NCBI GenBank assembly: GCA_902780235.1
Contig: CACZEL010000013.1
Location: 1-64,000, forward strand
Length of the DNA: 64,000 nucleotides
Direction: 5' to 3'
Origin: an uncultured Bacteroidales bacterium
GTDB taxonomy: Bacteria > Bacteroidota > Bacteroidia > Bacteroidales > Paludibacteraceae
A model generated the notes under the pieces. That model ran no database searches, had not been told where the DNA came from, and saw only the letters and a list, made by a program, of their open reading frames with translations. The translations under genes and the position numbers were made by a program. The stretch's first letter is position 1. Every line of letters starts with the position of its first letter. Shown here piece by piece: positions 42,901-57,101 of the stretch.

Positions 42901-43014
42901 CTACACATTGGAATAAGGCGGAAGAAGGATATGGGACCTTTTCATGAGAACAAGAAGGGTGTATTGCGGATCTTGCTCAGGGAATGCGCCAATGAAAGAA
43001 TTAGATGTTTCATA
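42901..43014 (-). pseudogene. Fragment resembling the C-terminal part of a PBP transpeptidase
   Basis: Between stop codons, the minus frame reads SNSFIGAFPEQDPQYTLLVLMK. This fits the SFxGxFPxxxPxYxxxVxI segment near the end of FtsI/PBP2-type transpeptidase domains. No upstream catalytic part is present in the window. It is a decayed fragment of about 35 codons. Confidence 0.45.
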
Positions 43015-43030
43015 TTAGTTTGTTGTTTTA

Positions 43031-43906
43031 TTATTGAATCAGATGTTTCCATTTAGGATTGAGGAATAACTTGGCTGTCTCAAGAGGAATCTCAACCTCT
43101 TGCTCGCCTTCCACCCAACCACCTAAAGTATAATGGGTATAATGCAATACAAGTGAGGTAGATGTGATGGTAAACGATGCCTGAATCCAATTGTGTAATG
43201 AGATGTTAGGGTATTTGTCCAAGAGTGCCCTATGGACATAATAAGAGATGTCGTAGATCATCTGCCTTTCGGTATCTTCGTAATCTTCACTAAATATATC
43301 CATGAAATGTACCATCTCACCAGTTCGGGTATCGAAGGCGAAGTATTGTGTGTCCGGAAAATGATGAAAACCGCCGCCATACCAAGTGTAGTGGTGTCGC
43401 ATTATGTACAAGCCATTTTGATTGTACGATGTTCTGCCACAAAGATGCTCAAATTGCCTACTCTGTACTCCGCCGTAATTAAAATACTCATCCGAATCAT
43501 TGGGAACAATTAGCGGATATACCGACTTGAGTTCAATATCATTCGGCTCGATACGCCAGTATTTTGCCATCGCTTCATCCAATTGCGTAATTTGATAGTG
43601 CGCGTGCAGTATGGTGTCTATCAGTTGTTCCTGAATCTTTTCCAGTACTTTTTTATCCTTCATGCCTGTCGGGAACTCTATATCTAACTGTTGCAGAATC
43701 CCAATCGTATCCGAGAATGTAAAGACATGAAAATCATTATAGACATAATCTGTGAACGCTGTTATTTGCGGGAACGCAGATTTTTCAGAGCTGCTTTTTG
43801 CCTCTTTTTCAGTTACTATCGCAATACTATCTGCCTCATCGGGATTACTTTTTAACTTCGGTTTGCCGCATGAAGCTTTATATATTTTAATCAGGGATGA
43901 TTGCAC
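43031..43906 (-). CDS. DUF3298/RsiV-like protein lacking its signal peptide
   Basis: The 291-codon frame has its best start at a GTG at 43906, inside the 3' end of the upstream gene. The C-terminal half (about 110-285) fits DUF3298-type domains (YGGGFHHFPDTQYFAFDTRTGEMVHFMDIF, LVLHYTHYTLGGWVEGEQEVEIPLE), which are normally exported. The N-terminus reads KIYKASCGKPKLKS, where ASC-GK looks like a lipobox without the preceding hydrophobic stretch. The signal peptide therefore seems to have been lost, perhaps by a deletion that joined it to the upstream gene. The product may be cytoplasmic or non-functional. Confidence 0.6.
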   Translation of the reverse strand: MQSSLIKIYKASCGKPKLKSNPDEADSIAIVTEKEAKSSSEKSAFPQITAFTDYVYNDFHVFTFSDTIGILQQLDIEFPTGMKDKKVLEKIQEQLIDTILHAHYQITQLDEAMAKYWRIEPNDIELKSVYPLIVPNDSDEYFNYGGVQSRQFEHLCGRTSYNQNGLYIMRHHYTWYGGGFHHFPDTQYFAFDTRTGEMVHFMDIFSEDYEDTERQMIYDISYYVHRALLDKYPNISLHNWIQASFTITSTSLVLHYTHYTLGGWVEGEQEVEIPLETAKLFLNPKWKHLIQ

Positions 43907-44996
43907 CCTCTTTTAATTCTATGCCTTTTAGTTTATCAGCATTTTGAGTGATTATCTCGCTAATGTTAGCTGATGGAACAGAACTCGTCTCACGTTCAAT
44001 TGGAGTGTCGGATTTTAGAGGACGGTCTATAATTTCCCTCCTTCGTGGTTGCGTATCTGTGGACGCTCCATCAATAATGGGCCATCCTGTAGTATAAATA
44101 CCAGAGACAAATTGATATTTGTTTATAATGACATCATAGACTCTACGAAGGACATCGCCAGCAAAAACAAGTATAATACCACAGAATACAGGGATGGAGA
44201 AAAATGAAATAAGAAGAGCGTCTTCTATACGAGGAAAAGCACCTAAGGGTATAATAAAAAGAGCACCTATGAAACTTACCAGATAAATTATTAATAGAAT
44301 CTTCCCGAAACGGATACCCCACATCACTTGATTTTTAATGGTCGCTAAACTTTCCGGAGATTTTTCCTCGTTTCCTGTGTGGATAAGAATAGTTATTAGC
44401 ACAGCTATAGCACTGGCAAAGGCGAGCATAAAGAAGAAGTTATTGAATTCCGGCATTGCGTCTATATGTGTTATAATGTTAAAATACCAACAAATGCAGA
44501 GACTTGCATAGTACAACAAATACGTCATAAAAATCACAGACGCAGCTAAAGCGAAATATCGTACAACCATTCCGGAAGTGGAGTTTTCGGATTTAGCATA
44601 GCAAAACCATAATGCGCCGGCTACAACAACAGGCACCATAAATTTATACCAAAAATAGTAAACCGGACGTTCAAAGGATAACAGATTTAATTCTCCAATA
44701 ACACAGACTAATTCGCTGCATAGCATAAATAATGTCATCAATAGAACAAGTATTGACCAGCCATTTCGTTTCGGCATCTGATTAGGGAAGCGATATGCTT
44801 CGAAGAAAAAGATAGCCGCACTTAGAAGTTGGATGGCGAAGAACACATGACGCGCAATTCGTACAGGCATTGAAAAGATTGTGAGGTATGCCATACCAAT
44901 TGTACGCCCCATGGCAAATTCAGCCAAGAAGAAGATAGCTGCGATACTCATGCCGATTGCGGCAATGAGGGTGGTTGTTTTGAAAGATGGTTTCAT
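43887..44996 (-). CDS. Hypothetical multi-pass membrane protein
   Basis: This 369-residue protein has about eight hydrophobic helices between residues 8 and 290 (for example TTLIAAIGMSIAAIFFLAEFA, FFMLAFASAIAVLITILIH, ISFFSIPVFCGIILVFAGDV). A polar cytoplasmic tail follows (about 310-369, RRREIIDRPLKSDTPIERE). No family is recognised. Its stop codon lies 20 bases inside the following signal-less DUF3298 frame. Confidence 0.65.
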   Translation of the reverse strand: MKPSFKTTTLIAAIGMSIAAIFFLAEFAMGRTIGMAYLTIFSMPVRIARHVFFAIQLLSAAIFFFEAYRFPNQMPKRNGWSILVLLMTLFMLCSELVCVIGELNLLSFERPVYYFWYKFMVPVVVAGALWFCYAKSENSTSGMVVRYFALAASVIFMTYLLYYASLCICWYFNIITHIDAMPEFNNFFFMLAFASAIAVLITILIHTGNEEKSPESLATIKNQVMWGIRFGKILLIIYLVSFIGALFIIPLGAFPRIEDALLISFFSIPVFCGIILVFAGDVLRRVYDVIINKYQFVSGIYTTGWPIIDGASTDTQPRRREIIDRPLKSDTPIERETSSVPSANISEIITQNADKLKGIELKEGAIIPD

Positions 44997-45007
44997 AATG
45001 TTATTTA

Positions 45008-45082
45008 TTATTTGGTTAGCGAATCAATGACTTTCATAATGATGGTGCCACAGACGATGAAGATAAACATTGCAAGTAACAT
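45008..45082 (-). CDS. Tiny single-TM peptide (24 residues)
   Basis: MLLAMFIFIVCGTIIMKVID plus SLTK starts at 45082, one base after the stop of the preceding tiny gene (TAG-T-ATG). It is almost entirely one membrane helix with a short polar C-terminus. The coupled arrangement with the next entry supports translation, but length makes certainty impossible. Confidence 0.4.
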   Translation of the reverse strand: MLLAMFIFIVCGTIIMKVIDSLTK

Positions 45083-45083
45083 A

Positions 45084-45155
45084 CTATCCCCCCTTTCTTC
45101 CCCAAATGAAATACCACAATGCGAAAGCGATAAGTCCGGTAATTAAAGATGACAT
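45084..45155 (-). CDS. Tiny single-TM peptide (23 residues)
   Basis: MSSLITGLIAFALWYFIWGR plus KGG starts at 45155 and ends at 45084. It is a hydrophobic helix with an aromatic belt and a basic C-terminus, similar in style to small membrane peptides such as KdpF-like subunits. It lies upstream of and next to the 24-residue peptide and the multi-pass protein, on the same strand. Confidence 0.4.
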   Translation of the reverse strand: MSSLITGLIAFALWYFIWGRKGG

Positions 45156-45226
45156 AATTTCAAGCACTGGTTCGTGTCGGCGTAACTTTTAAATAATTAT
45201 TATTCTGTCTTACACCTATTAATGCA

Positions 45227-45256
45227 TAAAAAGAGCGAAAGGTAACCCTTCCGCTC
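45227..45256 (-). terminator. Rho-independent terminator of the exonuclease gene
   Basis: On the minus strand, GAGCGGAAGG-gtt-ACCTTTCGCTC pairs with one mismatch or bulge and is followed by five T residues. It stands 23 bases after the stop codon of the 45279 gene. Confidence 0.75.
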
Positions 45257-45278
45257 AAAAAAGTTTCAAATTTGTGAA

Positions 45279-46721
45279 TTATTCTTTAATAATCCCTCTC
45301 CGTTTGAGTTCAAAGTAACATTCTTTTGTAGCCATGATGTCAGCAAGGGCATCGTGGGCATTAGAGAACTCATGACCAAAGAGTTTGTAATAGAGTTCTT
45401 GTAATGATGGCCATTTATATCCTCCGAAATACGGATTTGGATTCGGGATTGCGCAAAAATCGGTTGACGATTTCATCGTGCAAATGCATGGCTTATCCAT
45501 GAGAGTGACACTATCCATCCCTAAACGATATAATTCTGCTCCAACGATGTGTTGGTCAAAGTCGATATTGTGCCCGACTATTTGTTCTGCGAATGATAGA
45601 TCCGTATCAAACTCGTCTAACACATCGTGCAATAAAACTCCTTCTCGTTCTGCTTTTTCGGTTGTTATACCATGCACAGCGGCTGCATCATCTGGAATAC
45701 TAAATCCACCAGGTCGGATAATAAGTGATTTTTTCTTAAGTACATTACCATTCTTGTCTGTCATTATCCATGCTAATTGCACTAATCGTGGCCAATTATA
45801 AGAATCTGATATAGGAGCTTTATAGTTTCGCGGTGTACCAGTTGTCTCAGTATCAAAGAACAAGATAGAACCTTGCAACATTTCCTGCATCTGCTGTTCC
45901 ATCAAACGTTGTTGCTCTTGAAATGCATGTGATGTTTTTATACTGCACGGCTTCGATTCTTGTATAAAATGTTTTGTCATTTTTTTCAAAGTATTAAGAC
46001 TTTCTCCTTGAAGTTTTCTCACGACCGCTTCTTTTACTATTGAATCAGAGTCGTTCAAAAGCGATTTTAAAGATTCTGTGCTTTCAAGATACATTATAGC
46101 TTTACTTCTTGCGTAAGACGAAAAATAGAAAGAATCCTCCTTACAATAGATATTAACGTCCACTATAGACATATGAACAAAATTCCACAACTCTAAATAA
46201 TCTTCTTCCTTAATTATATAATCTCGGAAAGAAGGTACTGATAATCCAAGATCAGTACAAGGGCGATAAGGAGGAAAATCGCCTCCAAATATAGTCCCTC
46301 CCGGAAGTGGTTTATAAACATCAAAATTTTTACGATTATGCGTTGATCGAACTCCTCCCATACCAACAACAGGGACGACTCTTTCATTGGGGAATAATTC
46401 TATAAATTTTTTATATTCAGCCTGTCCCAAAAAGTCTACAACATCTATACATTGCATACGAATTGAAGTCGGCGAGGATGAATAGTTAGGATAAAAAGCA
46501 ACGTGTTTAATCGCCCATTGCTTGTCCCTTGCATTTTCTTGGGTAATGGTATCAATCCACATGTCTACAAAATCTTTATTCATGCAATGCATATCCCATA
46601 AAGCACGTTGTACATTTCTCGAATCAATTGATAGTAGAATCTTCAATTCTTCAAAAGTATTATTTGGGACAATAGTACTAATAATCTGCTCTTCTTCTGG
46701 CGTATAATAAACTTCTCTCAT
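45279..46721 (-). CDS. DEDDh exonuclease (DnaQ-like) with long unknown N-terminal region
   Basis: This is a 480-residue protein. The C-terminal domain (about 285-478) is a DnaQ/RNase T-type 3'-5' exonuclease: Exo I FFDTETTG (about 290-297), Exo II VGHNIDFDQHI and Exo III HDALADIMATKECY. Residues 1-280 are unlike standard DnaQ or PolC; they include helical HEAT-like stretches (STESLKSLLNDSDSIVKEAVVRKL) and a Gly/Pro-rich segment (GGTIFGGDFPPYRP). The region is AT-rich compared with the housekeeping genes. The N-terminal part may supply targeting. Whether it works with the three upstream genes or alone is unknown. Confidence 0.75.
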   Translation of the reverse strand: MREVYYTPEEEQIISTIVPNNTFEELKILLSIDSRNVQRALWDMHCMNKDFVDMWIDTITQENARDKQWAIKHVAFYPNYSSSPTSIRMQCIDVVDFLGQAEYKKFIELFPNERVVPVVGMGGVRSTHNRKNFDVYKPLPGGTIFGGDFPPYRPCTDLGLSVPSFRDYIIKEEDYLELWNFVHMSIVDVNIYCKEDSFYFSSYARSKAIMYLESTESLKSLLNDSDSIVKEAVVRKLQGESLNTLKKMTKHFIQESKPCSIKTSHAFQEQQRLMEQQMQEMLQGSILFFDTETTGTPRNYKAPISDSYNWPRLVQLAWIMTDKNGNVLKKKSLIIRPGGFSIPDDAAAVHGITTEKAEREGVLLHDVLDEFDTDLSFAEQIVGHNIDFDQHIVGAELYRLGMDSVTLMDKPCICTMKSSTDFCAIPNPNPYFGGYKWPSLQELYYKLFGHEFSNAHDALADIMATKECYFELKRRGIIKE

Positions 46722-46760
46722 AGTGATATTATTTAGTGTGAGTTGAAATACTACAAAATA

Positions 46761-47243
46761 TCAAGCTAAATTTACAACAGTTTGCATAAATTCTAATATC
46801 TTGTCGCATATTTTTTCTTGTTCTTGCCTAGTAGGATACTTATTCGCGACATGCAAATATTCATTTCTTTTATCTACTATTTCTTTATTTGCTGCTTGAG
46901 CAATATGTGATGCAAGGGTATTAAATAGGCGTCCTCCTTTTTTTAATGCATTTATATAACCGCCCAATGATGGCGGATTTGTTCCACATGGCCATGCATT
47001 ATGAATATCCAGGAAAGTTCTTAATGCAGTATCTAATGCTTTAGTTGAAAATAGCACCTTATACAAATATCTTTTCTTTGGTTCGCGACATTCTTTATCT
47101 ATATCTAACATTGTAACTAATTCTTTTTGCACATCGTCTATTTTGTGCTCTGCATCAATTGGAGACAGCGTTGGCGACGAACAAGAAGAACATAAGGTAT
47201 AATACTGTGCAAGCAATGTTTCTATTTGTTTGTTTTTAGCCAT
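46761..47243 (-). CDS. Hypothetical protein with HEPN-like motif
   Basis: This 160-residue helical protein is not recognised as a whole. Near its C-terminus, KRNEYLHVANKYP contains R-x4-H (R-NEYL-H), the catalytic pattern of many HEPN ribonucleases, and the preceding helices (about 65-125) would fit a four-helix bundle. It is part of an AT-rich three-gene run with almost no gaps (47243 to 47245). By inference it could be the toxin or effector of a small defence or toxin-antitoxin module. Confidence 0.5.
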   Translation of the reverse strand: MAKNKQIETLLAQYYTLCSSCSSPTLSPIDAEHKIDDVQKELVTMLDIDKECREPKKRYLYKVLFSTKALDTALRTFLDIHNAWPCGTNPPSLGGYINALKKGGRLFNTLASHIAQAANKEIVDKRNEYLHVANKYPTRQEQEKICDKILEFMQTVVNLA

Positions 47244-47244
47244 A

Positions 47245-48096
47245 TTACCTCTTTCTGTGTTTTGTTAAACTATAATCTGAATATGTATATGCTATTTTTT
47301 TCAAATTACTTATGCTATCTACTTCTATTGGTAATAATCCCATAAACGCAAGAGTGTTGTAGTATAGATTATTGCCATTTGGTGTAAAATCCCAATTGGT
47401 ATTCAAAAATTTGTTATATTTATTGTTTTTATTTTCCACTAGGAACCCATTATCCAATAACTGATAATTATATTTTAAAGTATATGTTAGGATGTTTTCA
47501 AATGTATCAACGAATCCACTTCGGCATTCTCTTTCAATCAAAACATCATCTCCTATATTATAAATATTCTTAATAGAATGCATTTTCGAAGGCCAAGAAG
47601 GGATCAAAATATTAGACTGCGATGATGGAGAATAAATTTCTTTATATTGATTTGTTTTAATAGCTTCAATGTTTTCTTCTGAAAATAGTTTTATATGCCA
47701 CATACGTTGAATGGCTCTATTTTGAATCCGTCTATCATAATAATCCATACTACATTCGTCAAAAAGTTTGCTAAACGATGGTAAGGCTGTTGAATCGTTG
47801 TATTCATAAATGAAACGGAAATGACTTAAAATATCTACATTATGAATATCATTAATCGTTTTCTTGTCAATAAATACAATGGGGACCATTTTTGAAAAAT
47901 ATGCTAGTTTAGATATGTATATACGACGAAGTAACAAATCTAATCTTTCTATTTCTTTTTTCTTCAAAAAGTACAAGCCGAAAATATTACCATTTGCAGG
48001 TATCAATATATCAGGATTGTCAATTGTAAACATATTTTGAGGCTTTACAATTGACTTTGGATTGTCGTTGACTATTTTTTCAAAAAGTGATAGCAT
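47245..48096 (-). CDS. Hypothetical protein of an AT-rich three-gene cluster
   Basis: This 283-residue soluble protein is rich in Asn, Ile, Tyr and Lys and has no signal peptide. Visible segments include DILIPANGNIFGLYFLKKKEIE near the N-terminus and a mixed alpha/beta middle (MVPIVFIDKKTINDIHNVDILSHFRFIY). I do not recognise a family and see no clear catalytic motif. It starts four bases downstream of the 48101-48427 gene and ends next to the HEPN-like gene, so the three are likely co-transcribed. Confidence 0.5.
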   Translation of the reverse strand: MLSLFEKIVNDNPKSIVKPQNMFTIDNPDILIPANGNIFGLYFLKKKEIERLDLLLRRIYISKLAYFSKMVPIVFIDKKTINDIHNVDILSHFRFIYEYNDSTALPSFSKLFDECSMDYYDRRIQNRAIQRMWHIKLFSEENIEAIKTNQYKEIYSPSSQSNILIPSWPSKMHSIKNIYNIGDDVLIERECRSGFVDTFENILTYTLKYNYQLLDNGFLVENKNNKYNKFLNTNWDFTPNGNNLYYNTLAFMGLLPIEVDSISNLKKIAYTYSDYSLTKHRKR

Positions 48097-48100
48097 ATTT

Positions 48101-48427
48101 TTATTCTCCTAATATTCCGTGAGCATTGATTGTTTCTTTAGCATATAACAATCTACTCTCTGTGTCTACATCTATTGCATTTTTCAGTATCCTTTTTTGT
48201 TCTGGTAAGAGGTATGTATCTCGTTCTACCTTTTCCTTTCTAATACGAGCGACGCAATCAAAAGCATCTTTCAAATGCTTTGCGGAAATGAGTGTTGGTA
48301 TTCCCTTATCATTTGCACTCGCTTGTTCCAAAATTATCTGAAGAGATGGTATTTTAAGAACCAGTTCTGCAAGTCCGGCTCTGTCATATATCTCATTTAA
48401 TAATAAATTTAAAATTGTATCTTTCAT
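48101..48427 (-). CDS. Small hypothetical helical protein, first gene of the AT-rich cluster
   Basis: This 108-residue protein is predicted mostly helical (MKDTILNLLLNEIYDRAGLAEL, KHLKDAFDCVARIRKEKVERD). It has no signal peptide and no recognised domain. Size and position at the head of the cluster would suit a regulatory or antitoxin-like partner, but that is only a guess. A 16-base direct repeat (one mismatch) stands in its upstream region. Confidence 0.5.
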   Translation of the reverse strand: MKDTILNLLLNEIYDRAGLAELVLKIPSLQIILEQASANDKGIPTLISAKHLKDAFDCVARIRKEKVERDTYLLPEQKRILKNAIDVDTESRLLYAKETINAHGILGE

Positions 48428-48611
48428 TTTCTTTATCGGATTTTCGGCATTCTCCGTATGTAAATATTTTCTTTTTATTTCGGTCTTCTCCCGCTCATCT
48501 CCCGCTCATCGGTCGGTGGAAGTTAAGAACAATTCTTTCGGCACTCTCCGTTACTTGTCTCTATTAGTATATGATATTTTTGTGCAAAAAGTAACCGCAG
48601 GGGAGTGATTT
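48428..48611. promoter_or_regulatory. Upstream region with 16-bp direct repeat and an 11-bp tandem repeat
   Basis: TTTCGGCATTCTCCGT (48442-48457) and TTTCGGCACTCTCCGT (48536-48551) match at 15 of 16 bases. Two copies of TCCCGCTCATC (about 48489-48510) lie between them. This could be an operator array for the 48101-48427 operon. No consensus TAnnTTTG box is seen. Confidence 0.45.
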
Positions 48612-50042
48612 TTATTTGAATAAATCATCCAATATCACTTCGCTATTTACTATACTGCGATGCAAGCCATCTGCGACACCGAACGTGGTTACAAATGTAG
48701 TCACGAGTGTTTTGTTTGATTTGGTTTGTGCCTGGAATATGCTCATCCTGTTGCGGAGCGTCTCTTCGTAACTGTCAGTAATACGATACTCGCCAACCGA
48801 AAATTTCATTTCACAGATATTAATAATCCGATCATCGCGCGAAATGATCATATCAATTTGCGCCCCTTTCTCCCCAGAGTTCTTAGGTGGATTGTATCTC
48901 CATGAAGATATTTCGGTCGCAATGCCGGAGATGCCTAATTTCTGTTTTATAGATTCAGTGTGCATCATACACACAAGTTCAAATGTGCGACCTTGCCAAG
49001 ACTCCACACTGTGTGTCATATAATGCTTACTCCACCATTGTTCATCTAAAGAATGGTTTTCGTGCACGTATTGCAGATAGAAGAGAGTATAGAAATCCGA
49101 AAGGCGATAGATGGCATCTTTTACTTTATTCCCAAATTGGTTGTACTTGAGGACAAAATCACATCGCTCAAGATTTTTAAGATATGCGGTTAGAGACTTG
49201 CCTTCCACTTCGATGGCTTCGCCGATTTGTGTGCGCGTCAAACCCTCCTTGTGATCCGCCAACAAGCGAGCTATTTGTATGTATCGCTCGGCGTTCGTAA
49301 ACAAGGCATTGAACAATTCGTCAAATTCAATTTTAAGAATGGCGTTTCGCTGGAAGAAAAGCCGGTCAATATTTTGAACCAGACTTTGTTTAGTGTCTAT
49401 AAGTTTCCAATAGAACGGCACACCGCCAATAATCATGTATGCCTGTGCAATTTGGTACCTATCCCATGCACATTTGCGCGAACGAAGATACACCTCAACT
49501 TCATGCAAAGTGAATGGACGTAAATAGATATTGCAAGTGATACGACAATGCAGTCCGCCTTGGTTCTCTACCAGATAGTCCATCATCCAACTGGTGGCAC
49601 TGCCGCTTGCAATGAGGAGAATATCTCTGCGCCGTGCTGCCCATCCATTCCAAAAGGTCTCGAACTCCTCCACAAAGTCAGATTGCGGAGTATCAATCCA
49701 CGGCATTTCATCGATGAAGATCACTTTCTTGCGGTCTTCGGGTAGTGACTCTATATAGTCCTCCAACGCATCAAATGCCTCTGACCAATCGGCGAATTTC
49801 GGTTGTTTCGCTAAATGTGCGTATTTCTTGACAGCTTTCGCGAAATTGCGCAATTGCTTGGAGAGAGATAAGTTGTGCCCACCAACATAAGAAAAATCAT
49901 ATTTTGCTTGAAAAAATTCATCAATCAGAAACGTCTTTCCCACGCGGCGACGACCATAGACAATCACAAACTCTGATTGATCACTAGCAAGGCATCTCTC
50001 CAAGTCCTTGATCTCTCGTTCTCTTCCTATCAACTTTTCCAT
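48612..50042 (-). CDS. AAA ATPase, ATPase_2/DUF234 type
   Basis: This 476-residue paralogue of the 1356-2759 protein has Walker A GRRRVGKT (about 30-37), Walker B KVIFIDEMPWIDT (about 107-119), the sensor-like LLIASGSATSWM, and a C-terminal DUF234-like part with AQIDMIISRDDRIINICEMKF, the split D...E-x-K of a nuclease-like fold. The two proteins share the N-terminal IGRERE motif and overall order but are clearly diverged. It has its own full promoter. No direct repeat like that at 1339/2807 is obvious here. Confidence 0.85.
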   Translation of the reverse strand: MEKLIGREREIKDLERCLASDQSEFVIVYGRRRVGKTFLIDEFFQAKYDFSYVGGHNLSLSKQLRNFAKAVKKYAHLAKQPKFADWSEAFDALEDYIESLPEDRKKVIFIDEMPWIDTPQSDFVEEFETFWNGWAARRRDILLIASGSATSWMMDYLVENQGGLHCRITCNIYLRPFTLHEVEVYLRSRKCAWDRYQIAQAYMIIGGVPFYWKLIDTKQSLVQNIDRLFFQRNAILKIEFDELFNALFTNAERYIQIARLLADHKEGLTRTQIGEAIEVEGKSLTAYLKNLERCDFVLKYNQFGNKVKDAIYRLSDFYTLFYLQYVHENHSLDEQWWSKHYMTHSVESWQGRTFELVCMMHTESIKQKLGISGIATEISSWRYNPPKNSGEKGAQIDMIISRDDRIINICEMKFSVGEYRITDSYEETLRNRMSIFQAQTKSNKTLVTTFVTTFGVADGLHRSIVNSEVILDDLFK

Positions 50043-50059
50043 ATCTTTGAAATTTTGCG

Positions 50060-50091
50060 CAAAGATACTGCTTTTTGTTCAATTATGCAAA
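50060..50091 (-). promoter_or_regulatory. Promoter of the 48612-50042 ATPase
   Basis: On the minus strand TTTG (50088-50091), a 20-base spacer and TATCTTTG (50060-50067) match the consensus, 18 bases upstream of the ATG. Confidence 0.8.
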
Positions 50092-50152
50092 TTTTTGCGG
50101 GTCTTTTCCCCCCAAAAGTGCATTTTTTTTCGAGATTTGGGGATTTGCGCAC

Positions 50153-51775
50153 TCAATCAATCACTATAAATCCAGCCCAATAGTAGGGCGCAGAGTATTT
50201 GGGATGCTGACGCATACGACGTTGGGCAGTGGCTAAAGCACTATGGGGATAGTCAAAGATATGTTCCGCCATCTCCTCATCTATGGATACTGCCTTTGCT
50301 AATGTTTGTCTTCCTTTTAGGAGTGCTTCATAAAAATACTGCATAAAGACAGCCGTAGCTTCATCATCGACCTGCCATAGTGACATGACTATTGTTTGTG
50401 CCCCTGCTTGTTTGAATGCTCGTTGCAATCCCCATACACCTTCCGTAGTAACCTCACCCAATGCAGTATTACAAGCGGACAACACTACTATATCTGCGCC
50501 TGATAAGTCCAAAGTGGCAATTTCAGCGGCGGTAAGTATTCCATCTTCTGTATCTTTTGGTATAGCCTTGCCCTCCCAGGCGCGCGCTCCATAAGCCATG
50601 ATGAGTCCGCTTCGTTGCATAGCATTGCCTTCAATGGGGCGATTGACAAATCCATGAGTAGAGAGGTGCAATATCGAAGGGCTTTTCCCGCTAAGCGACT
50701 TGAAAGATGCTTCTGTACCTTGTTTTTGCGAAAGAGTCTTTACTTGGTATTGCATGCCCGACAAAAGTAGGCTTATTTCGTTTATCTCCTGTTTGGAATA
50801 AGGCAAAGTACCTACCGAACTACGGGTTGTTGCTTGTTGCATCGTTTCGGCAGATGCCCGATAGAACAAATCACCATACAAGGTCGCAGATTTTGCCGGA
50901 TAATGATTGTGCTTGTTCACTAACTCGCGAGTGCTAGATAGGCGCGTTATATTGTAGTGATAACTAACAGTACTTTCTCGATCATACGGCAAAGCCTCAA
51001 TCGCGATTTGATTTAGCACCCCCCACGGAGCAAAATAAATAGTTGTTATGTCTTGACTTTCCAAATAAAAGAGAATCTTAAACAATATTACTTGGCACAA
51101 AGCCGCGCCGTATTTATCTACCGCATATAGGTCGCTGGGGTGTTTTTGTAGCCAAAGCGTTAGATTTTGTTCAGTTGTGATGGGGATAAAAACCGGAGAT
51201 TGACTATCTTGCGTTATCACCAAAGCAGCATACTTATACAAAGCCTTTATCTTTGCACCTTCAAATACATTGAAACTTACAAATTCTATAGCAGCCTCTC
51301 CGTTGCCTAATTTTTTCTGAACATCCCGCCATGTAACATGATCCGGAGAAAGGGCGTGCTTTCGCTGTTGTGTCGTACGCAACAACAATTGTTTCACAAA
51401 AAGCAGATAGTCATAGACATCCCCCATTACCGAATGATCTTCAAGGTATGCAGAGGAAAGGATATAATGGAATATGAGATCCTTCTCTACCAAAATGGTT
51501 AAATCTGCCCGTTCTTGTTCAGACAAGATTGAAAACATCTGCTCAATCATTCGCGTCCTGCTTTGCAGATACGATTTGGCAAACCTCAACACCTCGGAAT
51601 AATTGCCTTTTGGAAATTGGTCAGCAATGTAATTGTTTGCTCTTTGATTTTCCTCAAAAGTCCGGCCATCCACATATAAAAAGGCATTTACCAATTTATC
51701 CTCAAGCGAGTTTGTTTGAGCACAGACACCGAAGACCGATACTATAAAGAGCAATATGACCAATATTCGTTTCAT
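50153..51775 (-). CDS. Exported CHAT-domain protease
   Basis: This 540-residue protein has a signal peptide (MKRILVILLFIVSVFGVCAQ). Residues 22-150 are helical. The C-terminal CHAT domain (about 245-540) includes IYFAPWGVLNQIAIEALP, the catalytic His motif ILHLSTHGFV (His374), the catalytic Cys motif VVLSACNTALGEV (Cys435), and GVWGLQRAFKQAGAQTIVMSLWQVDDEAT. CHAT proteins are caspase-fold cysteine peptidases, related to separase. Most known ones are cytoplasmic and linked to TPRs, so an exported one beside a caspase is notable. Its start overlaps the stop of the caspase gene by four bases. Confidence 0.88.
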   Translation of the reverse strand: MKRILVILLFIVSVFGVCAQTNSLEDKLVNAFLYVDGRTFEENQRANNYIADQFPKGNYSEVLRFAKSYLQSRTRMIEQMFSILSEQERADLTILVEKDLIFHYILSSAYLEDHSVMGDVYDYLLFVKQLLLRTTQQRKHALSPDHVTWRDVQKKLGNGEAAIEFVSFNVFEGAKIKALYKYAALVITQDSQSPVFIPITTEQNLTLWLQKHPSDLYAVDKYGAALCQVILFKILFYLESQDITTIYFAPWGVLNQIAIEALPYDRESTVSYHYNITRLSSTRELVNKHNHYPAKSATLYGDLFYRASAETMQQATTRSSVGTLPYSKQEINEISLLLSGMQYQVKTLSQKQGTEASFKSLSGKSPSILHLSTHGFVNRPIEGNAMQRSGLIMAYGARAWEGKAIPKDTEDGILTAAEIATLDLSGADIVVLSACNTALGEVTTEGVWGLQRAFKQAGAQTIVMSLWQVDDEATAVFMQYFYEALLKGRQTLAKAVSIDEEMAEHIFDYPHSALATAQRRMRQHPKYSAPYYWAGFIVID

Positions 51776-52623
51776 TCCAATAGGTATTGGTTGTTCTTGT
51801 TCGGAAGTTCTACCAATGGGGTTTGTGGACGTTTGACTAATTCGTTGATAGTCTTATTAAGCAGTGCGGAAAGTTGGTCAGCAACAATAGTTGAAAGATT
51901 GTCACGAAGAAGATAAAGAGCATACGTCAGAGATCCGCATTGTTTGCTATCAGAAAGACGATGCTGGCGATTACATTCATTGTCAGCACATGCGCTAATG
52001 CTTATCCATTCTATTGTGCGTTGTTCTTTGTACGGATGTTTGATGCCGTTTAGTTCAAACTTTGAATGAGCACCGCGTATTTCCGTCGGCTCCGTGATGT
52101 CACGCGTAGATGTTCCACTATGGCAAGCATCGGAAACGACTATTATTATTCCATTGATTCCCACCTTCTGCCGTAATTGCTTCAACCAAGCATTTAACTG
52201 ATCGTCAGTAATATGGTGCTCGCCATGATATTTCGGAGTTGGTTCTTGCAATGCGTCATACGCCACCCAAGCTTCGTCATAGCCATCTTCTTCATCGCCA
52301 TCTAAATCCGTTATCTGCTGACCATGACCGGAGAAATGAATATATACGACATCGTTTGTTTGCGCAGAAGCAATCAATTTTTTGAAAGCCTCGCCAATAG
52401 CGTGACTGGTGGCTTGCTCATTCCGCAAAGTGTCGATATTGCCCGCCTTAAAACCGTTAGCCACAAGCATAGTCTTGGCAAAGACGATATCGCTGTCTCC
52501 ATGAATAACAGGCCAGCCATAGTCCACATCAGGATATGCGCCAATACCTATAATTAGCGCGCGTCGTTCTGCGTTAACATAGAGTGAAAGCAGCAAAAAC
52601 GATATGATTAGTCCGCGTTTCAT
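51772..52623 (-). CDS. Exported caspase-like protease (peptidase C14 type)
   Basis: This 283-residue protein has a signal peptide (MKRGLIISFLLLSLYVNA) followed directly by a caspase-like p20 domain. ALIIGIGAYPDV starts strand 1, the catalytic His is in YIHFSGHGQQ (His100), and the catalytic Cys is in VVSDACHSGTS (Cys167). Acidic residues DLDGDEEDGYDEA follow the His, as in metacaspases, which often need Ca2+ and cleave after Arg or Lys. The C-terminal part (about 205-283) includes ISISACADNECNRQH. It overlaps its neighbours on both sides by four bases, so the operon is translationally coupled. Confidence 0.88.
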   Translation of the reverse strand: MKRGLIISFLLLSLYVNAERRALIIGIGAYPDVDYGWPVIHGDSDIVFAKTMLVANGFKAGNIDTLRNEQATSHAIGEAFKKLIASAQTNDVVYIHFSGHGQQITDLDGDEEDGYDEAWVAYDALQEPTPKYHGEHHITDDQLNAWLKQLRQKVGINGIIIVVSDACHSGTSTRDITEPTEIRGAHSKFELNGIKHPYKEQRTIEWISISACADNECNRQHRLSDSKQCGSLTYALYLLRDNLSTIVADQLSALLNKTINELVKRPQTPLVELPNKNNQYLLE

Positions 52624-53303
52624 TTACCATGTTTGATAGTATTGAGCAAATCTAAAGCCGATTGTTGATGAATACCTTGCATAGAAACTACTCCGTTTAG
52701 CAATCTTCTGGATCGATAGAGCTGATGCTGCTTAATAGCACAAAGAGCTTGCAGATAGAGGATATCTTCTTTTTCCGACCAAGCCTGTCGGTTTTCGGAA
52801 GTAATATCTTTCTTATCTAACAAAACTTTCTCTAATATGGCATCAGCTTGTTTGTAATCCCCTTTTTGCATATATTCATTCGCCTGCAAAATGATTTCTG
52901 CCGATTCCTCACAACCTTTGAGTTGAGAATAAGCATTCATCATCTCTATAGCCGTTTCAGCATATATAGGTGAATCCCCTAATCCGGATAGACGTGACAT
53001 CTGCGGACCAATGACAATCACTCCTACAAAGCACGCTGCGACAGCAATAGAGGCAACACTCCGTAGCGTCCAGCGAACGACACGTTTATGATGGTCTTCT
53101 TTCTCCTTTTGGATACTCTCTTCCTCACCTTGAAGCATCTCCTTCAATGATCGGCGACGAATGGCCAATATGATTTCTTTTTGCAGTTCCATTTCATCTC
53201 TTAATGACGAATCATCTGCAGAAAGTAACCTTTCAAATTGCAATTTTTCATCTTCGGTCATCTGACCTGCAAGATATTTGTCTATTTGCTCTTGATTTGT
53301 CAT
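52620..53303 (-). CDS. Single-TM anti-sigma-factor-like protein with TPR-like tail
   Basis: This 227-residue protein starts at the ATG at 53303, which forms ATGA with the sigma-factor stop. Residues 1-75 are an acidic helical domain (QEQIDKYLAGQMTEDEKLQFERLL), the layout of Bacteroidota anti-sigma or FecR-like N-termini. A single TM helix lies at about 79-100. An extracytoplasmic tail carries TPR-like helices (about 125-220, YSQLKGCEESAEIILQANEYMQKGDYKQADAILEKVL). It probably holds the ECF sigma factor at the membrane. Its outer part could be sensed or cut by the two exported proteases encoded downstream; that link is inferred. Confidence 0.75.
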   Translation of the reverse strand: MTNQEQIDKYLAGQMTEDEKLQFERLLSADDSSLRDEMELQKEIILAIRRRSLKEMLQGEEESIQKEKEDHHKRVVRWTLRSVASIAVAACFVGVIVIGPQMSRLSGLGDSPIYAETAIEMMNAYSQLKGCEESAEIILQANEYMQKGDYKQADAILEKVLLDKKDITSENRQAWSEKEDILYLQALCAIKQHQLYRSRRLLNGVVSMQGIHQQSALDLLNTIKHGK

Positions 53304-53872
53304 GGCTTTTTCAATAAGGTTTTTAGTTTCTGCATACATTTGTACTTCTGCGTTTTAGCACTATCCGCACAACTATAATGGAGATTCCATGCAATTGTTT
53401 CCCAAGAATCCTCGTCCCAATAAAATGCCTTTAATAAAGGCGCACATGGTTTGCCCATTTTGTCCACCACCTCTCGGATGGCATCCCGTCTGTCTTGGCG
53501 GAATTGCATCTTTTCATCGGCATCGGCTCTATCCATTTCATACGCTTCTTGGGCTTTTGCAAAAATTTCTTCGTCATTAGGAATGTCTTCTCCATAACGA
53601 CGATTTGTCTCTAACCAAACGCGTATTCCTATGCTGTTAAGATAAGTTGAAAGAGAGGCTGTTAATGAAGTTTCCGTTAATTTTTCCCGTTCAATATTTT
53701 CCCATACTCGGCTTACGGACTCTTGGAACACCTCTGCTAATAATTGCTGATTGAGAGAATGAAATTTGTTAGCAAGAAATGCCATAAATGACTCCCTATA
53801 TTCGCGATAAAACAAGGAAATTGCCTTATTGTTTCTCGCGCGAAAAGCTTGTATGTATTCGGTATCAGTCAT
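53300..53872 (-). CDS. ECF-type RNA polymerase sigma factor
   Basis: This 190-residue protein starts at MTDTEYIQAFRARNN. The longer reading to 53998 crosses the promoter and is rejected. Region 2 is at about 10-75 (AISLFYREYRESFMAFLANKF...VFQESVSRVWENI) and region 4 is at about 130-188 (LLKAFYWDEDSWETIAWNLHYSCADSAKTQKYKCMQKL). It is the first gene of the sigma/anti-sigma/caspase/CHAT operon. Expression from a normal housekeeping promoter suggests the pair is pre-made and waits for a signal. No second operon with an obviously different promoter type was seen in the window. Confidence 0.82.
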   Translation of the reverse strand: MTDTEYIQAFRARNNKAISLFYREYRESFMAFLANKFHSLNQQLLAEVFQESVSRVWENIEREKLTETSLTASLSTYLNSIGIRVWLETNRRYGEDIPNDEEIFAKAQEAYEMDRADADEKMQFRQDRRDAIREVVDKMGKPCAPLLKAFYWDEDSWETIAWNLHYSCADSAKTQKYKCMQKLKTLLKKP

Positions 53873-53892
53873 TGAGGTATCTTTTGCGAGTG

Positions 53893-53924
53893 CAAAATTA
53901 CAACTTTTTTCTGAATTATGCAAA
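53893..53924 (-). promoter_or_regulatory. Promoter of the sigma/anti-sigma/protease operon
   Basis: On the minus strand TTTG (53921-53924), 20 bases and TAATTTTG (53893-53900) match the consensus. The ATG at 53872 is 21 bases downstream of the -7 box, which fixes the start codon. Confidence 0.82.
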
Positions 53925-53987: not shown

Positions 53988-54918
53988 TTATTTGTCACTT
54001 TGTGAATCGTCCTCGCCTAATAAGCTGTTAGTTGAGCCAAAGAGAGATAACTGTCGTATGGCGCGATCATAGTCGGACTCTAATTGGTTCATCTCTCGCT
54101 GACGATAGATGGTGTATTCGTGTTCGGCTTTTTCTTGCGCTTGTTGATGGCTTATAGAACCGCTTCCTTCTAACAACGGGCGACGATTATTACTGAGAAC
54201 CCGATCAAGTTCGTCTATCCACTCTTGCATGGTCATAGGATGTTGCTCCATCGCTTGCAATTCCGCATAGTCGAAGAACTGAGACACCAACAGATTTAGT
54301 CGCTGGTGTATGTTGGTGTGCTGCATAGTGCATCTTGTTTTGCACCGTTGCAAAGAACTGACGTGTAATCTCGGCTTTCGGATCATAATCCACCGCAGTT
54401 GCATAGATGTCGGTCACTTGCTGATAGAGGTTGCGCTCACTACTGCGAATATCACGGATACGCTGGAGTAATTCGCGGAAATAACGTCCTCCGTTACCTT
54501 TTAGCCGTTCGTCATCCAATGTGTAGCCTTTGATAATATATTCATGGATGCGCTGCGTTGCCCACTGACGAAAACGCGTACCTTGCACAGAATGAACACG
54601 ATAACCGACAGAAATGACGACATCAAGGTTGTAGAAAGCAACTTCATGAGATTGCATTTTCCCTTCTATAGCCCCATGTTGAGTGGTTGTTCGGAAAAAC
54701 CGAACTACCACATTGGAGTCCAATTCTCCTTCTTCGAAAATGTGCTTAAGATGTTCACTAATAGTAGATTTTGCCTTACCAAAGAGGGCAACCATCTGCT
54801 CCTGAGTTACCCACACTGTCTCGTCTTGAAGAATGACATCAATAGCGGCTTTGCCTTCTTCGGATTGATAGATAACAATCTCGCCTCTTGTGTCATTTGT
54901 AAGATCTTGTGTTTTCAT
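53988..54918 (-). pseudogene. Broken rhuM-family gene (Fic-like/virulence RhuM)
   Basis: From 54918 the frame encodes a typical RhuM N-terminus (IVIYQSEEGKAAIDVILQDE, VTQEQMVALFGKAKSTISEHL, QGTRFRQWATQRIHEYIIKG, EITRQFFATVQNKMHYA). Near 54300 the frame shifts. The RhuM C-terminus continues in the next frame (LLVSQFFDYAELQAMEQHPM, ISHQQAQEKAEHEYTIYRQRE) to the stop at 53988. Compared with the usual family, about 40-50 residues between HYA and the DYAE helix are missing, so this is a deletion plus frameshift. Its promoter is intact. Confidence 0.82.
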
Positions 54919-55034: not shown

Positions 55035-57101
55035 TTAGTTCCGGAAGTGGAGTTCGCCGTCGCGGAGCTCAACGATGACAGGTCGTTTGCTATCTACCTT
55101 ACCGCCGATGATCTGTTTACTCAGCTCGTTAAGGACGAGGCGCTGGAGCGCTCTCTTGACAGGTCGTGCACCAAACTGCGGATCGTAGCCTTCTTTGGCG
55201 ATATAGCGGATCGCGTCGTCCGTGACACGCAGGTCGATACCTTGCTCTTCGAGCATCTTGTGTACGCGGTTGACTTGCAGACCGACCACGGCTTTGATGT
55301 CCTCTTCGCTCAACTCACCGAAATGGATGATCTCGTCGATACGGTTGATGAACTCGGGTCGAACCTGTGCGCGGAGTTGCTCCTCCGTGAGGTTGGAAGT
55401 CATGATGATAAGGGTGTTCTTGAAGTTCACCACGCGTCCTTTGTTATCCGTCAGACGTCCGTCATCGAGCACTTGGAGCAGGACGTTGAACACATCCGGA
55501 TGCGCTTTCTCGATCTCATCGAACAGCACAACGGAGTAGGGTTTGCGTCGGATGGCTTCAGTTAACTGACCGCCTTCATCGTATCCTACGTATCCCGGAG
55601 GCGCACCGATGAGTCGGGTGGCACTGAATTTCTCTTGGTACTCACTCATATCGATACGCGTGATCATGTTCTCGTCGTCGAAGAGGTAGTCCGCCAGTGC
55701 TTTTGCCAACTCGGTCTTACCGACACCGGTCGTACCGAGGAAGATGAAACTACCGATCGGTCGTTTGGGGTCTTGCAGACCTGCACGGCTTCTGCGGATC
55801 GCATCGCTGACAGCTTCGATTGCTTCGTTCTGACCGATGATCCGTTTGTGCAGTTCTTCTTCGAGGTGCAGTAACTTATCGCGCTCCGATTGCATCATTT
55901 TCGCTACCGGAATACCGGTCCAACGCGCTACTACTTCGGCGATATCATCTTCATCGACTTCCTCTTTGATGAGTGCTTCGTTGCTGATGGCATGGAGCGA
56001 GTCCTGTGCCGCTTTGATGTTCGCTTCGGCGGCAGGGATCTGACTGTAGCGTATCTCGGCTACCTTACCGTAGTCGCCTTCGCGTTCCGCTACTTCAGCC
56101 TGATGCTTCAGCGTCTCGATACGTGCTTTCTCATTCTGGATGGTAGCGACATAGCCTTTCTCTTTGTTCCAGCGCGCATTGAGCTCTTCGGATTTGGCTT
56201 TGAGATCCTTGAGTTGTTTCTCTATCTCGCCCAACTTGGCTTCGTTCTTATCGCGTTTGATGGCCTCGCGCTCGATCTCGAGTTGTTTGATCTGCCGGTC
56301 TAAGGTATCGATCTCTTCGGGTTTGGAATCCACTTCGAGACGTAACTTAGCCGCTGCCTCATCGACCAGGTCGATCGCTTTGTCCGGCAAGAACCGGTCG
56401 GTGATATACCGTGCACTCAGCGTCACGGCCGCAATGATCGCGTCATCCTTGATACGCACCTTATGATGGGTCTCATAGCGCTCTTTCAGACCACGTAGGA
56501 TCGATATCGTCGCTGCCTCGTCCGGTTCATCGACCATCACTTTCTGGAAACGACGCTCCAAAGCCTTATCGGTCTCGAAATATTTTTGATATTCGTCGAG
56601 GGTAGTAGCACCGATCGCACGCAGGTCACCACGAGCCAACGCCGGTTTGAGGATGTTGGCTGCGTCCATCGCTCCGCTGGATTTACCGGCTCCTACGAGG
56701 GTATGGATCTCATCGATGAAGAGGATGATCTCGCCGGCAGCGGCCACGACCTCATTAACGACGCCTTTGAGTCGCTCTTCGAACTCACCTTGGTACTTCG
56801 CGCCGGCAATCAACGCACCCATATCCAGGGAGTAGATCTGTTTCTTCTTGAGGTTCTCCGGCACGTCTCCGCGCACGATACGATGCGCCAGACCTTCGGC
56901 GATAGCCGTCTTACCGACACCCGGTTCGCCGATGAGGATAGGATTGTTCTTCGTTCTACGGCTCAGTATCTGTAATACCCGCCGAATCTCGTCATCTCTA
57001 CCGATGACGGGATCTAACTTGCCTTCTTTCGCCCGCTCACAGAGGTTGATGGCGAACTTCTTGAGGTTTTCGTTTTGTGTGTTGGAATTGTTAGGATTCA
57101 T
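55035..57101 (-). CDS. clpB: ClpB-type disaggregase without the N-terminal domain
   Basis: This is a 688-residue AAA+ protein, against about 860 for usual ClpB. It begins at the linker before NBD1 ([22 protein letters not shown]). NBD1 has Walker A GEPGVGKT and Walker [10 protein letters not shown]. The coiled-coil M-domain is present (about 265-385, [24 protein letters not shown]). NBD2 has [21 protein letters not shown] and GARPVKR. The Clp_N repeat domain is absent, and NBD2 is short by about 30 residues between MTSNL and [11 protein letters not shown]. It should still form hexamers that re-solubilise aggregates with DnaK. The upstream region holds a palindrome and a sigma-54-like element. 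Confidence 0.92.

What the first reader, a model, noticed from the sequence alone, without database searches (positions are those of the whole stretch)
50153..53924. Four-gene operon: ECF sigma, membrane anti-sigma, exported caspase and exported CHAT protease
Seen directly: four genes joined by ATGA-type four-base overlaps behind one strong promoter, with intact catalytic His/Cys pairs in both proteases (His100/Cys167 and His374/Cys435) and signal peptides on both. Known: ECF/anti-sigma pairs transmit envelope signals, often through cleavage of the anti-sigma factor, and caspase-like and CHAT proteases often work in cascades. Inference: two caspase-fold proteases from different clades would act outside the cytoplasm on, or downstream of, the TPR-like outer part of the anti-sigma protein. 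This would be an envelope-stress, cell-death or phage-defence circuit controlled by proteolysis.
Basis: partly seen in the sequence, partly recalled or inferred. Interest (0 to 1): 0.82.

Follow-up and report, generated by a model that had tools for sequence, protein, structure and literature searches.

The report
Sigma-factor operon with two exported proteases
A Bacteroidales bacterium carries a four-gene operon in which a gene switch (a sigma factor and its membrane-bound inhibitor) sits with two caspase-type proteases that look exported, and relatives keep the same partners together, which suggests that proteolysis outside the inner membrane controls the switch.

Summary
On the minus strand lie ECF sigma (53300-53872), one-TM anti-sigma (52620-53303), C14 caspase (51772-52623) and CHAT protease (50153-51775), joined by ATGA overlaps behind a housekeeping promoter; catalytic residues are intact and both proteases have signal-peptide-like N-termini. 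The same four genes stand together in nine loci, in three gene orders, in at least five families. CHAT or caspase lies within 5 kb of 33 of 120 related sigma genes, against 0 of 20 classic ECF controls; 20 lower-ranked loci had none. One side of a sigma-tree branch holds 36 of 43 linked sigmas, window included; a neighbouring group has anti-sigmas fused to trypsin, never CHAT-linked. Linked anti-sigmas often carry Arg-Gly/Ser/Asn (Lys-Gly in the window) outside the TM: 26 of 34, then 5 of 7 in new genomes, though my looser pre-stated pattern was not significant. Best explanation: CHAT and/or caspase cut the anti-sigma, starting sigma release, as DegS does for RseA or Csx29 for Csx30. The cut is inferred. 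Cell death and phage defence lack direct support. CHAT genes beside another ECF group (ECF54) are in print; this is a new variant of a known kind.

The parts
53300..53872 (-). ECF sigma factor, 190 aa
   Evidence: TIGR02937 1.1e-7, below cut-off; relatives' profile matches SigW 3.5e-12; groups with CHAT-linked sigmas
52620..53303 (-). Anti-sigma factor, 227 aa: presumed N-terminal sigma-binding region, one TM (about residues 83-99), outer linker with Lys129-Gly130, TPR-like C-terminus
51772..52623 (-). C14 caspase/metacaspase-like protease with signal-peptide-like N-terminus, 283 aa, His100/Cys167
   Evidence: PF00656 9.9e-16; residues and N-terminus; nearest solved sequences are metacaspases and GSU0716
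50153..51775 (-). CHAT protease with signal-peptide-like N-terminus, 540 aa, His374/Cys435; shorter N-terminal part than most relatives
   Evidence: PF12770 2.9e-58; His374 and Cys435 invariant in 11 aligned sequences including the window
53893..53924 (-). Bacteroidales housekeeping-type promoter, TTTG-N20-TAATTTTG
   Evidence: TTG...TAnnTTTG at the same spacing in L042 and L043, not found at that place in L044
52905..52928 (-). Candidate cleavage region in the anti-sigma's outer linker (SQLKGCEE)
   Evidence: position checked; motif; function inferred
48612..50042 (-). AAA ATPase (PADLOC candidate PDC-S27) with a promoter-like element of its own; probably not part of the system
   Evidence: of 168 loci compared, a close copy only in L042 and a distant one in L083

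Best explanation
This is an envelope-signalling operon. SHOWN: an ECF sigma and a one-TM anti-sigma are co-encoded, with overlapping genes, with two proteases whose N-termini look like signal peptides; the gene set recurs in relatives; the sigma groups with other sigmas that lie beside CHAT or caspase genes. INFERRED: the anti-sigma holds the sigma at the inner membrane. When the periplasmic CHAT and/or caspase is activated by an unknown envelope signal, it cuts the anti-sigma after the Arg (Lys in the window) in the linker between TM and TPR-like part. That exposes the stump to further proteolysis, and the sigma is freed to drive its regulon. CHAT is the likelier main protease because it is the more constant partner; the caspase would activate or assist it. 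In a neighbouring group a trypsin domain fused to the anti-sigma would do the same job in cis.
For: Gene set kept in three orders: sigma>anti>caspase>CHAT (window, L042, L044; L073 with a short anti-sigma the profile missed), caspase>sigma>anti>CHAT (L050 Bacteroides sp. 224, L074, L082, L122) and CHAT>caspase>sigma>anti (L134, L230). CHAT or caspase within 5 kb of the sigma in 14 of 40 order, 12 of 40 phylum and 7 of 40 held-out regions, against 0 of 20 classic ECF regions. On the sigma tree one side of a branch (53 of 127 rows, SH-aLRT 94, quick method) holds 36 of 43 linked sigmas and no trypsin type. Anti-sigmas fused to Trypsin_2: 7 of 7 tested by Pfam; 48 by profile (42, 6), none CHAT- or caspase-linked, as pre-stated. 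Linker motif R[GSN]: 26 of 34 linked in the discovery set (8.3 in shuffles) and 5 of 7 held-out (1.7; 1% of shuffles as high); trypsin type 9/23 vs 7.9 and 5/19 vs 4.6; held-out unlinked 1/12 and 0/12. Among proteins near these sigmas: caspase His and Cys 18 of 18; CHAT Cys 40 of 40, His 37 of 40 with 3 alignment gaps. Asp residues beside the active sites (caspase D45 and D165 18 of 18; CHAT D471 39 of 40) fit the basic S1 preference that I recall for metacaspases and separase. Precedent: Csx29 TPR-CHAT cleaves the sigma inhibitor Csx30 (PMC10028731, passages).
Against: No cleavage was measured and no structure or complex was modelled. The sigma profiles were built from CHAT- or caspase-linked loci, so samples lean towards linked sigmas; lower-ranked loci had no link (0 of 20 within about 2.7 kb). 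87 of 120 sampled regions have neither protease within 5 kb; some are short contigs. The motif pattern that I pre-stated, [RK][GSN], was not significant held-out (5 of 7 vs 3.3; 17.5% of shuffles), and [RK]G was 3 of 7 (7.7%); R[GSN] was picked after the held-out linkers had been seen, and scored at 8-46 rather than the stated 12-45 residues. A second held-out set meant to re-test it had no linked locus. The window has Lys, not Arg. Discovery unlinked anti-sigmas also exceed shuffles (10/24 vs 5.6). Linked rows are related, and trypsin fusion reflects about two changes on the tree, so shuffle and Fisher values overstate independence. In the 12 linked phylum-level loci CHAT is on the opposite strand, not co-transcribed.
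Confidence: 0.45

Rival explanations
1. The proteases are outputs, not activators: sigma and anti-sigma sense envelope stress by other means (for example site-1 and site-2 proteases encoded elsewhere) and the operon supplies caspase and CHAT as periplasmic quality-control or attack proteases.
For: The proteases are downstream genes in the window. Loci L045, L046, L070 and L072 carry related CHAT and caspase genes with no such sigma in the stretch held, three of them with a trypsin-type gene, so the proteases can work without it. The promoter is of the housekeeping type.
Against: The CHAT link persists where CHAT is convergent with sigma/anti-sigma; linker Arg in linked anti-sigmas; trypsin fused directly to anti-sigmas in a neighbouring group.
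Confidence: 0.32
2. A conflict or defence system: the proteases act in response to phage or rival bacteria, ending in self-sacrifice or attack, with the sigma amplifying the response.
For: Caspase and CHAT proteins occur in bacterial conflict systems (PMC10907252, passages), and an EACC2-caspase group with ECF sigma and a TPR protein is described (PMC8195603, passages). Flanking genes match PDC-S05 and PDC-S27 models. The 5.4-kb block shared with L042 has sharp edges.
Against: No PADLOC match beyond a generic caspase model; EACC1-type caspase model far below cut-off (24.4 vs 140 bits); exported proteases would not act in the cytoplasm; no caspase match in 50,697 phage records.
Confidence: 0.17
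3. Secreted digestive proteases placed by chance or loosely beside a sigma/anti-sigma pair.
For: Both proteases look exported, and 87 of 120 related sigma regions lack them nearby.
Against: Recurrence of the four genes in three gene orders and 0 of 20 controls.
Confidence: 0.06

Closest known systems
Type III-E CRISPR CASP module (Csx29 TPR-CHAT, Csx30, CASP-sigma)
   Same: TPR-CHAT protease, anti-sigma and ECF sigma encoded together; cleavage of the inhibitor by CHAT, with a model of sigma release (PMC10028731, passages)
   Different: Csx29 works with RNA-guided Cas7-11; here the proteases look exported, the anti-sigma has a TM, a C14 caspase is added, and no Cas7-11 was seen among the flanking proteins scanned
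ECF54 group
   Same: CHAT, subtilase and carboxypeptidase domains in the conserved gene neighbourhood, with proteolytic control proposed (PMC8999054, passages)
   Different: [quoted passage not shown] here a membrane anti-sigma is present. Whether the window sigma falls in any numbered ECF group was not tested
DegS/RseA/RseP sigma-E pathway of E. coli
   Same: A periplasmic protease cuts a one-TM anti-sigma (described in PMC10028731 passages)
   Different: Clan CD cysteine proteases rather than a serine protease; the trypsin-fused neighbouring group is nearer in chemistry. No sequence relation tested
EACC2-caspase/ECF sigma/TPR conflict systems
   Same: Caspase beside ECF sigma and TPR protein (PMC8195603, passages)
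   Different: Those caspases come with EACC2 and variable C-terminal domains; here a single-domain caspase plus CHAT. EACC2 itself not tested
Dma/Das (ECF21) pairs of Bacteroides
   Same: Bacteroidota sigma/anti-sigma pairs linked to the envelope (PMC13088901, PMC9308784, passages)
   Different: Dma anti-sigmas end in an outer-membrane beta-barrel; no protease partner is mentioned in the passages seen

Membership tests
ECF sigma factor | sigma2 and sigma4 regions matching ECF profiles | tested here: met
   Window protein alone is below the TIGR02937 cut-off; the eight-member profile A2 matches ECF structures (SigW 3.5e-12, SigH, SigE)
Membrane anti-sigma factor | N-terminal cytoplasmic sigma-binding domain, one TM, gene next to sigma | tested here: inconclusive
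   Topology and position fit; NF052375 anti-sigma only 17.5 of 100 bits; binding not tested
Peptidase C14 (caspase/metacaspase) | C14 domain with His/Cys dyad | tested here: met
CHAT protease | PF12770 with His/Cys dyad | tested here: met
Type III-E CASP (Craspase) module | Cas7-11 partner | tested here: not met
   None among the flanking proteins scanned and CHAT has a signal-peptide-like N-terminus; the rest of the genome was not searched
EACC1-type caspase conflict system | NF047832 match over cut-off | tested here: not met
   24.4 vs 140 bits
Dma anti-sigma family | C-terminal outer-membrane beta-barrel | tested here: not met
   Only 227 aa with about 128 residues after the TM, TPR-like
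ECF54 | Sequence membership of group ECF54 | not tested
   The classification paper is not held and I used no ECF group models
[quoted passage not shown]
   Candidate site only

The most novel reading that the evidence does not exclude
A signalling lineage widespread in Bacteroidota in which a separase/caspase-type protease working in the periplasm is the site-1 protease for an ECF anti-sigma factor, cutting at an Arg/Lys in the linker. A neighbouring lineage carries out the same step with a trypsin domain fused to the anti-sigma. The CRISPR Csx29/Csx30/CASP-sigma module would then be a cytoplasmic parallel or descendant of such a CHAT-sigma circuit.
Probability: 0.37. Interest if true: 0.82.

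Novelty: new variant of a known kind. Interest (0 to 1): 0.63.

Why it matters
How most Bacteroidota ECF sigmas are held and released is open: one survey found class I anti-sigma domains beside only 6% of Bacteroidetes ECFs, against 32% on average (PMC7406223, passages). This locus points to a protease-linked branch with a concrete cleavage-site hypothesis. It would give exported bacterial caspase and CHAT proteins a signalling role outside cell death and CRISPR, and it makes the origin of the Csx29 circuit testable.

Tried and rejected
Structure prediction of CHAT and anti-sigma was intended but the tool was off, so no fold search was run. The CHAT alignment searched against solved structures showed only TPR-type or other non-CHAT chains among the 60 of 115 matches listed, because the alignment includes TPR repeats; the single CHAT sequence found none. 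One search used a wrong sigma reading frame and found no sigma; corrected. Autoregulation by the operon's own sigma found no support: the upstream element is the housekeeping type. The AAA ATPase (PDC-S27) was considered a fifth member because it shares the 92% identical block with L042; rejected since, of 168 loci, only L042 has a close copy. A phage origin was not supported. CHAT matches on plasmids are distant (208 records, all under 60% identity, none covering 80%).

My pre-stated motif test used [RK][GSN] and was not significant held-out. R[GSN] was chosen afterwards. I tried to re-test R[GSN] on new loci; the 20 fetched had no CHAT or caspase link within about 2.7 kb, so it could not be re-tested; 0 of 12 unlinked and 3 of 6 trypsin-type anti-sigmas there had it.

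Literature: searches did not turn up a description of this caspase/CHAT/sigma/anti-sigma set in Bacteroidota; I saw listings, and passages of eight papers only. PMC8999054, listed and opened, does report CHAT genes beside ECF54 sigmas. The 2021 ECF classification paper is not held and may hold a group for this sigma.

Rows dropped before counts: the phylum sample took 40 of rows 2-61 (20 skipped by hand, mostly repeat genomes or near relatives); the order sample is rows 4-43 without skips; the held-out sample is the first 40 rows from genomes G782 and up, without skips; the second held-out set is the next 20 such rows (a further 20 were asked for and not obtained); the control is 20 of the first 34 rows (14 skipped by hand, mostly near contig ends). 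L042 and L043 were left out of motif counts as near copies of the window; L043 was left out of the tree, L042 kept. A sigma gene was not recognised in 1 of 40 (order) and 2 of 40 (phylum) regions; these count as unlinked in the totals of 120.
Full report
What is there. The window is part of a 2.28-Mb, 78.6% complete assembly. A 95% identical caspase lies in an uncultured Bacteroidales isolate, and others in Paludibacteraceae MAGs from deer (93%) and cattle (52%), so the source is probably a Bacteroidales of an animal gut. On the minus strand four genes run sigma (53300-53872), anti-sigma (52620-53303), caspase (51772-52623) and CHAT (50153-51775), each junction an ATGA overlap. Only one CHAT match was found in this genome. 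The caspase and CHAT domains exceed Pfam cut-offs. The anti-sigma has a basic stretch, one TM and a TPR-like end. In the wider family the caspase is patchy: 9 of 101 genomes.

Promoter. Directly upstream is TTTG-N20-TAATTTTG. L042 and L043 have TTG...TAnnTTTG at the same spacing; in L044 the scan found no such element at that place. Elements of this type occur 8 times in the window (up to 3 mismatches) against 0.6 expected. Thus the operon has a housekeeping promoter; autoregulation by its own sigma is not indicated, nor excluded.

Conservation of the gene set. With profiles built from the window genes and their first relatives I labelled the neighbourhoods of caspase and CHAT hits and of sigma hits. 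All four genes stand together in nine loci including the window: sigma>anti>caspase>CHAT in the window, L042 and L044; caspase>sigma>anti>CHAT in L050 (Bacteroides sp. 224), L074, L082 and L122; CHAT>caspase>sigma>anti in L134 and L230 (two CHAT genes in L230). L073 has the first order with a 130-aa anti-sigma that the profile missed, L043 is cut by its contig end, and L143 has all four types but not on one strand. By the tools' anonymous family labels these span at least five families of the order. In these nine loci the caspase and CHAT all begin with hydrophobic, signal-peptide-like stretches. Full four-gene clusters on one strand are uncommon among sampled sigma loci: 2 of 40 in the order sample (3 counting L143), 0 of 40 in the phylum sample and 1 of 40 held out.

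Wider association. Of 40 order-level regions, 39 had a recognised sigma gene; 31 had an anti-sigma of this family, 11 a CHAT domain, 6 a caspase-type gene (three of these, L120, L121 and L143, are large multi-domain proteins) and 14 either protease within 5 kb. Of 40 phylum-level regions, 38 had a recognised sigma gene and 12 a CHAT, all 12 on the opposite strand to the sigma; none had a caspase. Of 40 held-out regions, 7 were linked. Twenty lower-ranked regions had no link within about 2.7 kb. Of 20 classic Bacteroidales ECF regions used as control, none had CHAT or caspase (Fisher 0.001 for 14/39 vs 0/20). The sigma profiles came from linked loci, so these rates are not population frequencies.

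A neighbouring group with fused trypsin. Many unlinked sigmas of the family are followed by an anti-sigma of about 350 aa whose outer part is a Trypsin_2 domain (7 of 7 tested by Pfam, E between 1e-21 and 1e-27). By profile there are 42 such genes in the three main samples and 6 in the last, and none is CHAT- or caspase-linked, as pre-stated for new genomes. On the sigma tree (127 rows, quick method because the careful search did not finish; midpoint root), one side of a branch (53 rows, SH-aLRT 94) holds 36 of 43 linked sigmas, 17 unlinked and no trypsin type, while 40 of 42 trypsin types form another group; the window sigma groups with L042, L044 and L082. The exclusivity therefore reflects few evolutionary events. 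L046, L070 and L072 carry CHAT and caspase with a separate trypsin-type gene and no such sigma nearby. The recurring theme is predicted periplasmic endoproteases partnered with this sigma/anti-sigma family.

A candidate cleavage site. In linked anti-sigmas the variable linker outside the TM often has an Arg followed by Gly, Ser or Asn, mostly 24-31 residues from the TM, in many as Y..YF.pYpN.....RG. R[GSN] was found in 26 of 34 discovery linkers (8.3 in shuffles) and 5 of 7 held-out linkers (1.7; 1% of shuffles as high). It was not enriched in trypsin-type linkers (9/23, 5/19, and 3/6) nor in later unlinked ones (1/12; 0/12), but it was in discovery unlinked ones (10/24 vs 5.6). Limits: the pattern I wrote down beforehand was the looser [RK][GSN], which was not significant held-out (5 of 7 vs 3.3); R[GSN] was picked after those linkers had been seen, the scored stretch was 8-46 rather than 12-45 residues, and my attempt at a second independent test found no linked locus. 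The window itself has Lys129-Gly130 (52905-52928 on the minus strand codes SQLKGCEE). Caspase Asp45 and Asp165 are kept in 18 of 18 caspases near these sigmas and CHAT Asp471 in 39 of 40. From memory, equivalent Asp residues give metacaspases and separase their Arg/Lys preference; no call tested this.

Mechanism. I favour release of the sigma by proteolysis of the anti-sigma outside the membrane, with CHAT as main protease since it is the more constant partner, and caspase as an optional activator or second protease. Shown: co-encoding, export-type N-termini, conserved active sites, grouping of linked sigmas. Inferred: cleavage, its place, its trigger and its consequence. The main rival is that the proteases are outputs of the stress response.

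Comparison with known systems. The nearest worked-out case is Csx29/Csx30/CASP-sigma, where a TPR-CHAT protease cleaves a sigma inhibitor (PMC10028731, passages). This locus may work like it; it is not filed as a member, because the proteases look exported and no Cas7-11 was seen among the flanking proteins scanned. A review states that CHAT, subtilase and carboxypeptidase genes are conserved beside ECF54 sigmas and that proteolytic control without an anti-sigma was proposed there (PMC8999054, passages), so an ECF-CHAT neighbourhood as such is not new. A 2012 survey of prokaryotic metacaspases noted possible signal peptides and varied operons (PMC3501461, passages). The EACC2-caspase/ECF sigma systems (PMC8195603, passages) and the Dma/Das pairs (PMC13088901 and PMC9308784, passages) are further parallels. 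I found no description of the caspase/CHAT/sigma/anti-sigma set in searches, but the main ECF classification paper is not held.

Surroundings. A block from 48536 to 53903, the four genes plus an AAA ATPase, is 92% identical in L042 with sharp edges. Upstream of it the two differ as far as L042 reaches; downstream, synteny resumes at window 42994-43778 after a differing stretch of 4-5 kb. It is thus a region of replacement or movement. The ATPase and a RhuM-type gene match PADLOC candidate models. This is weak support for a defence context and says nothing of mechanism.

Noticed in passing
window 53988-54404 and 54205-54918 (-): A RhuM-family gene (PF13310) lies in two overlapping frames, apparently broken, directly upstream of the operon.
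   Followed up: no
window 43779-48535 and upstream of 53903, vs L042: The 5.4-kb operon-plus-ATPase block is shared with L042 at 92% while the DNA on either side differs; synteny resumes downstream at window 42994-43778.
   Followed up: partly
window 55035-57101 (-): ClpB-like protein of 688 aa whose AAA match begins at residue 55, so the usual N-terminal domain seems absent.
   Followed up: no
L070, L046, L072: Clusters of a trypsin-type protease, CHAT and caspase without this sigma nearby, two of them (L070, L072) with a small gene lacking Pfam match; L070 is in the window's own genus.
   Followed up: partly
L140, L144, L148, L149, L150: Anti-sigmas of the same family sit upstream of about 728-aa proteins; the one tested (L140) is a Peptidase_C39 ABC exporter.
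   Followed up: partly
L131, L183, L186, L191, L198, L202 and others: Anti-sigma factors fused to a trypsin-like domain, a large group in Bacteroidota.
   Followed up: yes
L271, L275, L282, L286, L288 and others: A third type of unlinked anti-sigma with a long outer linker rich in Pro, Glu and Asp and no trypsin match.
   Followed up: no
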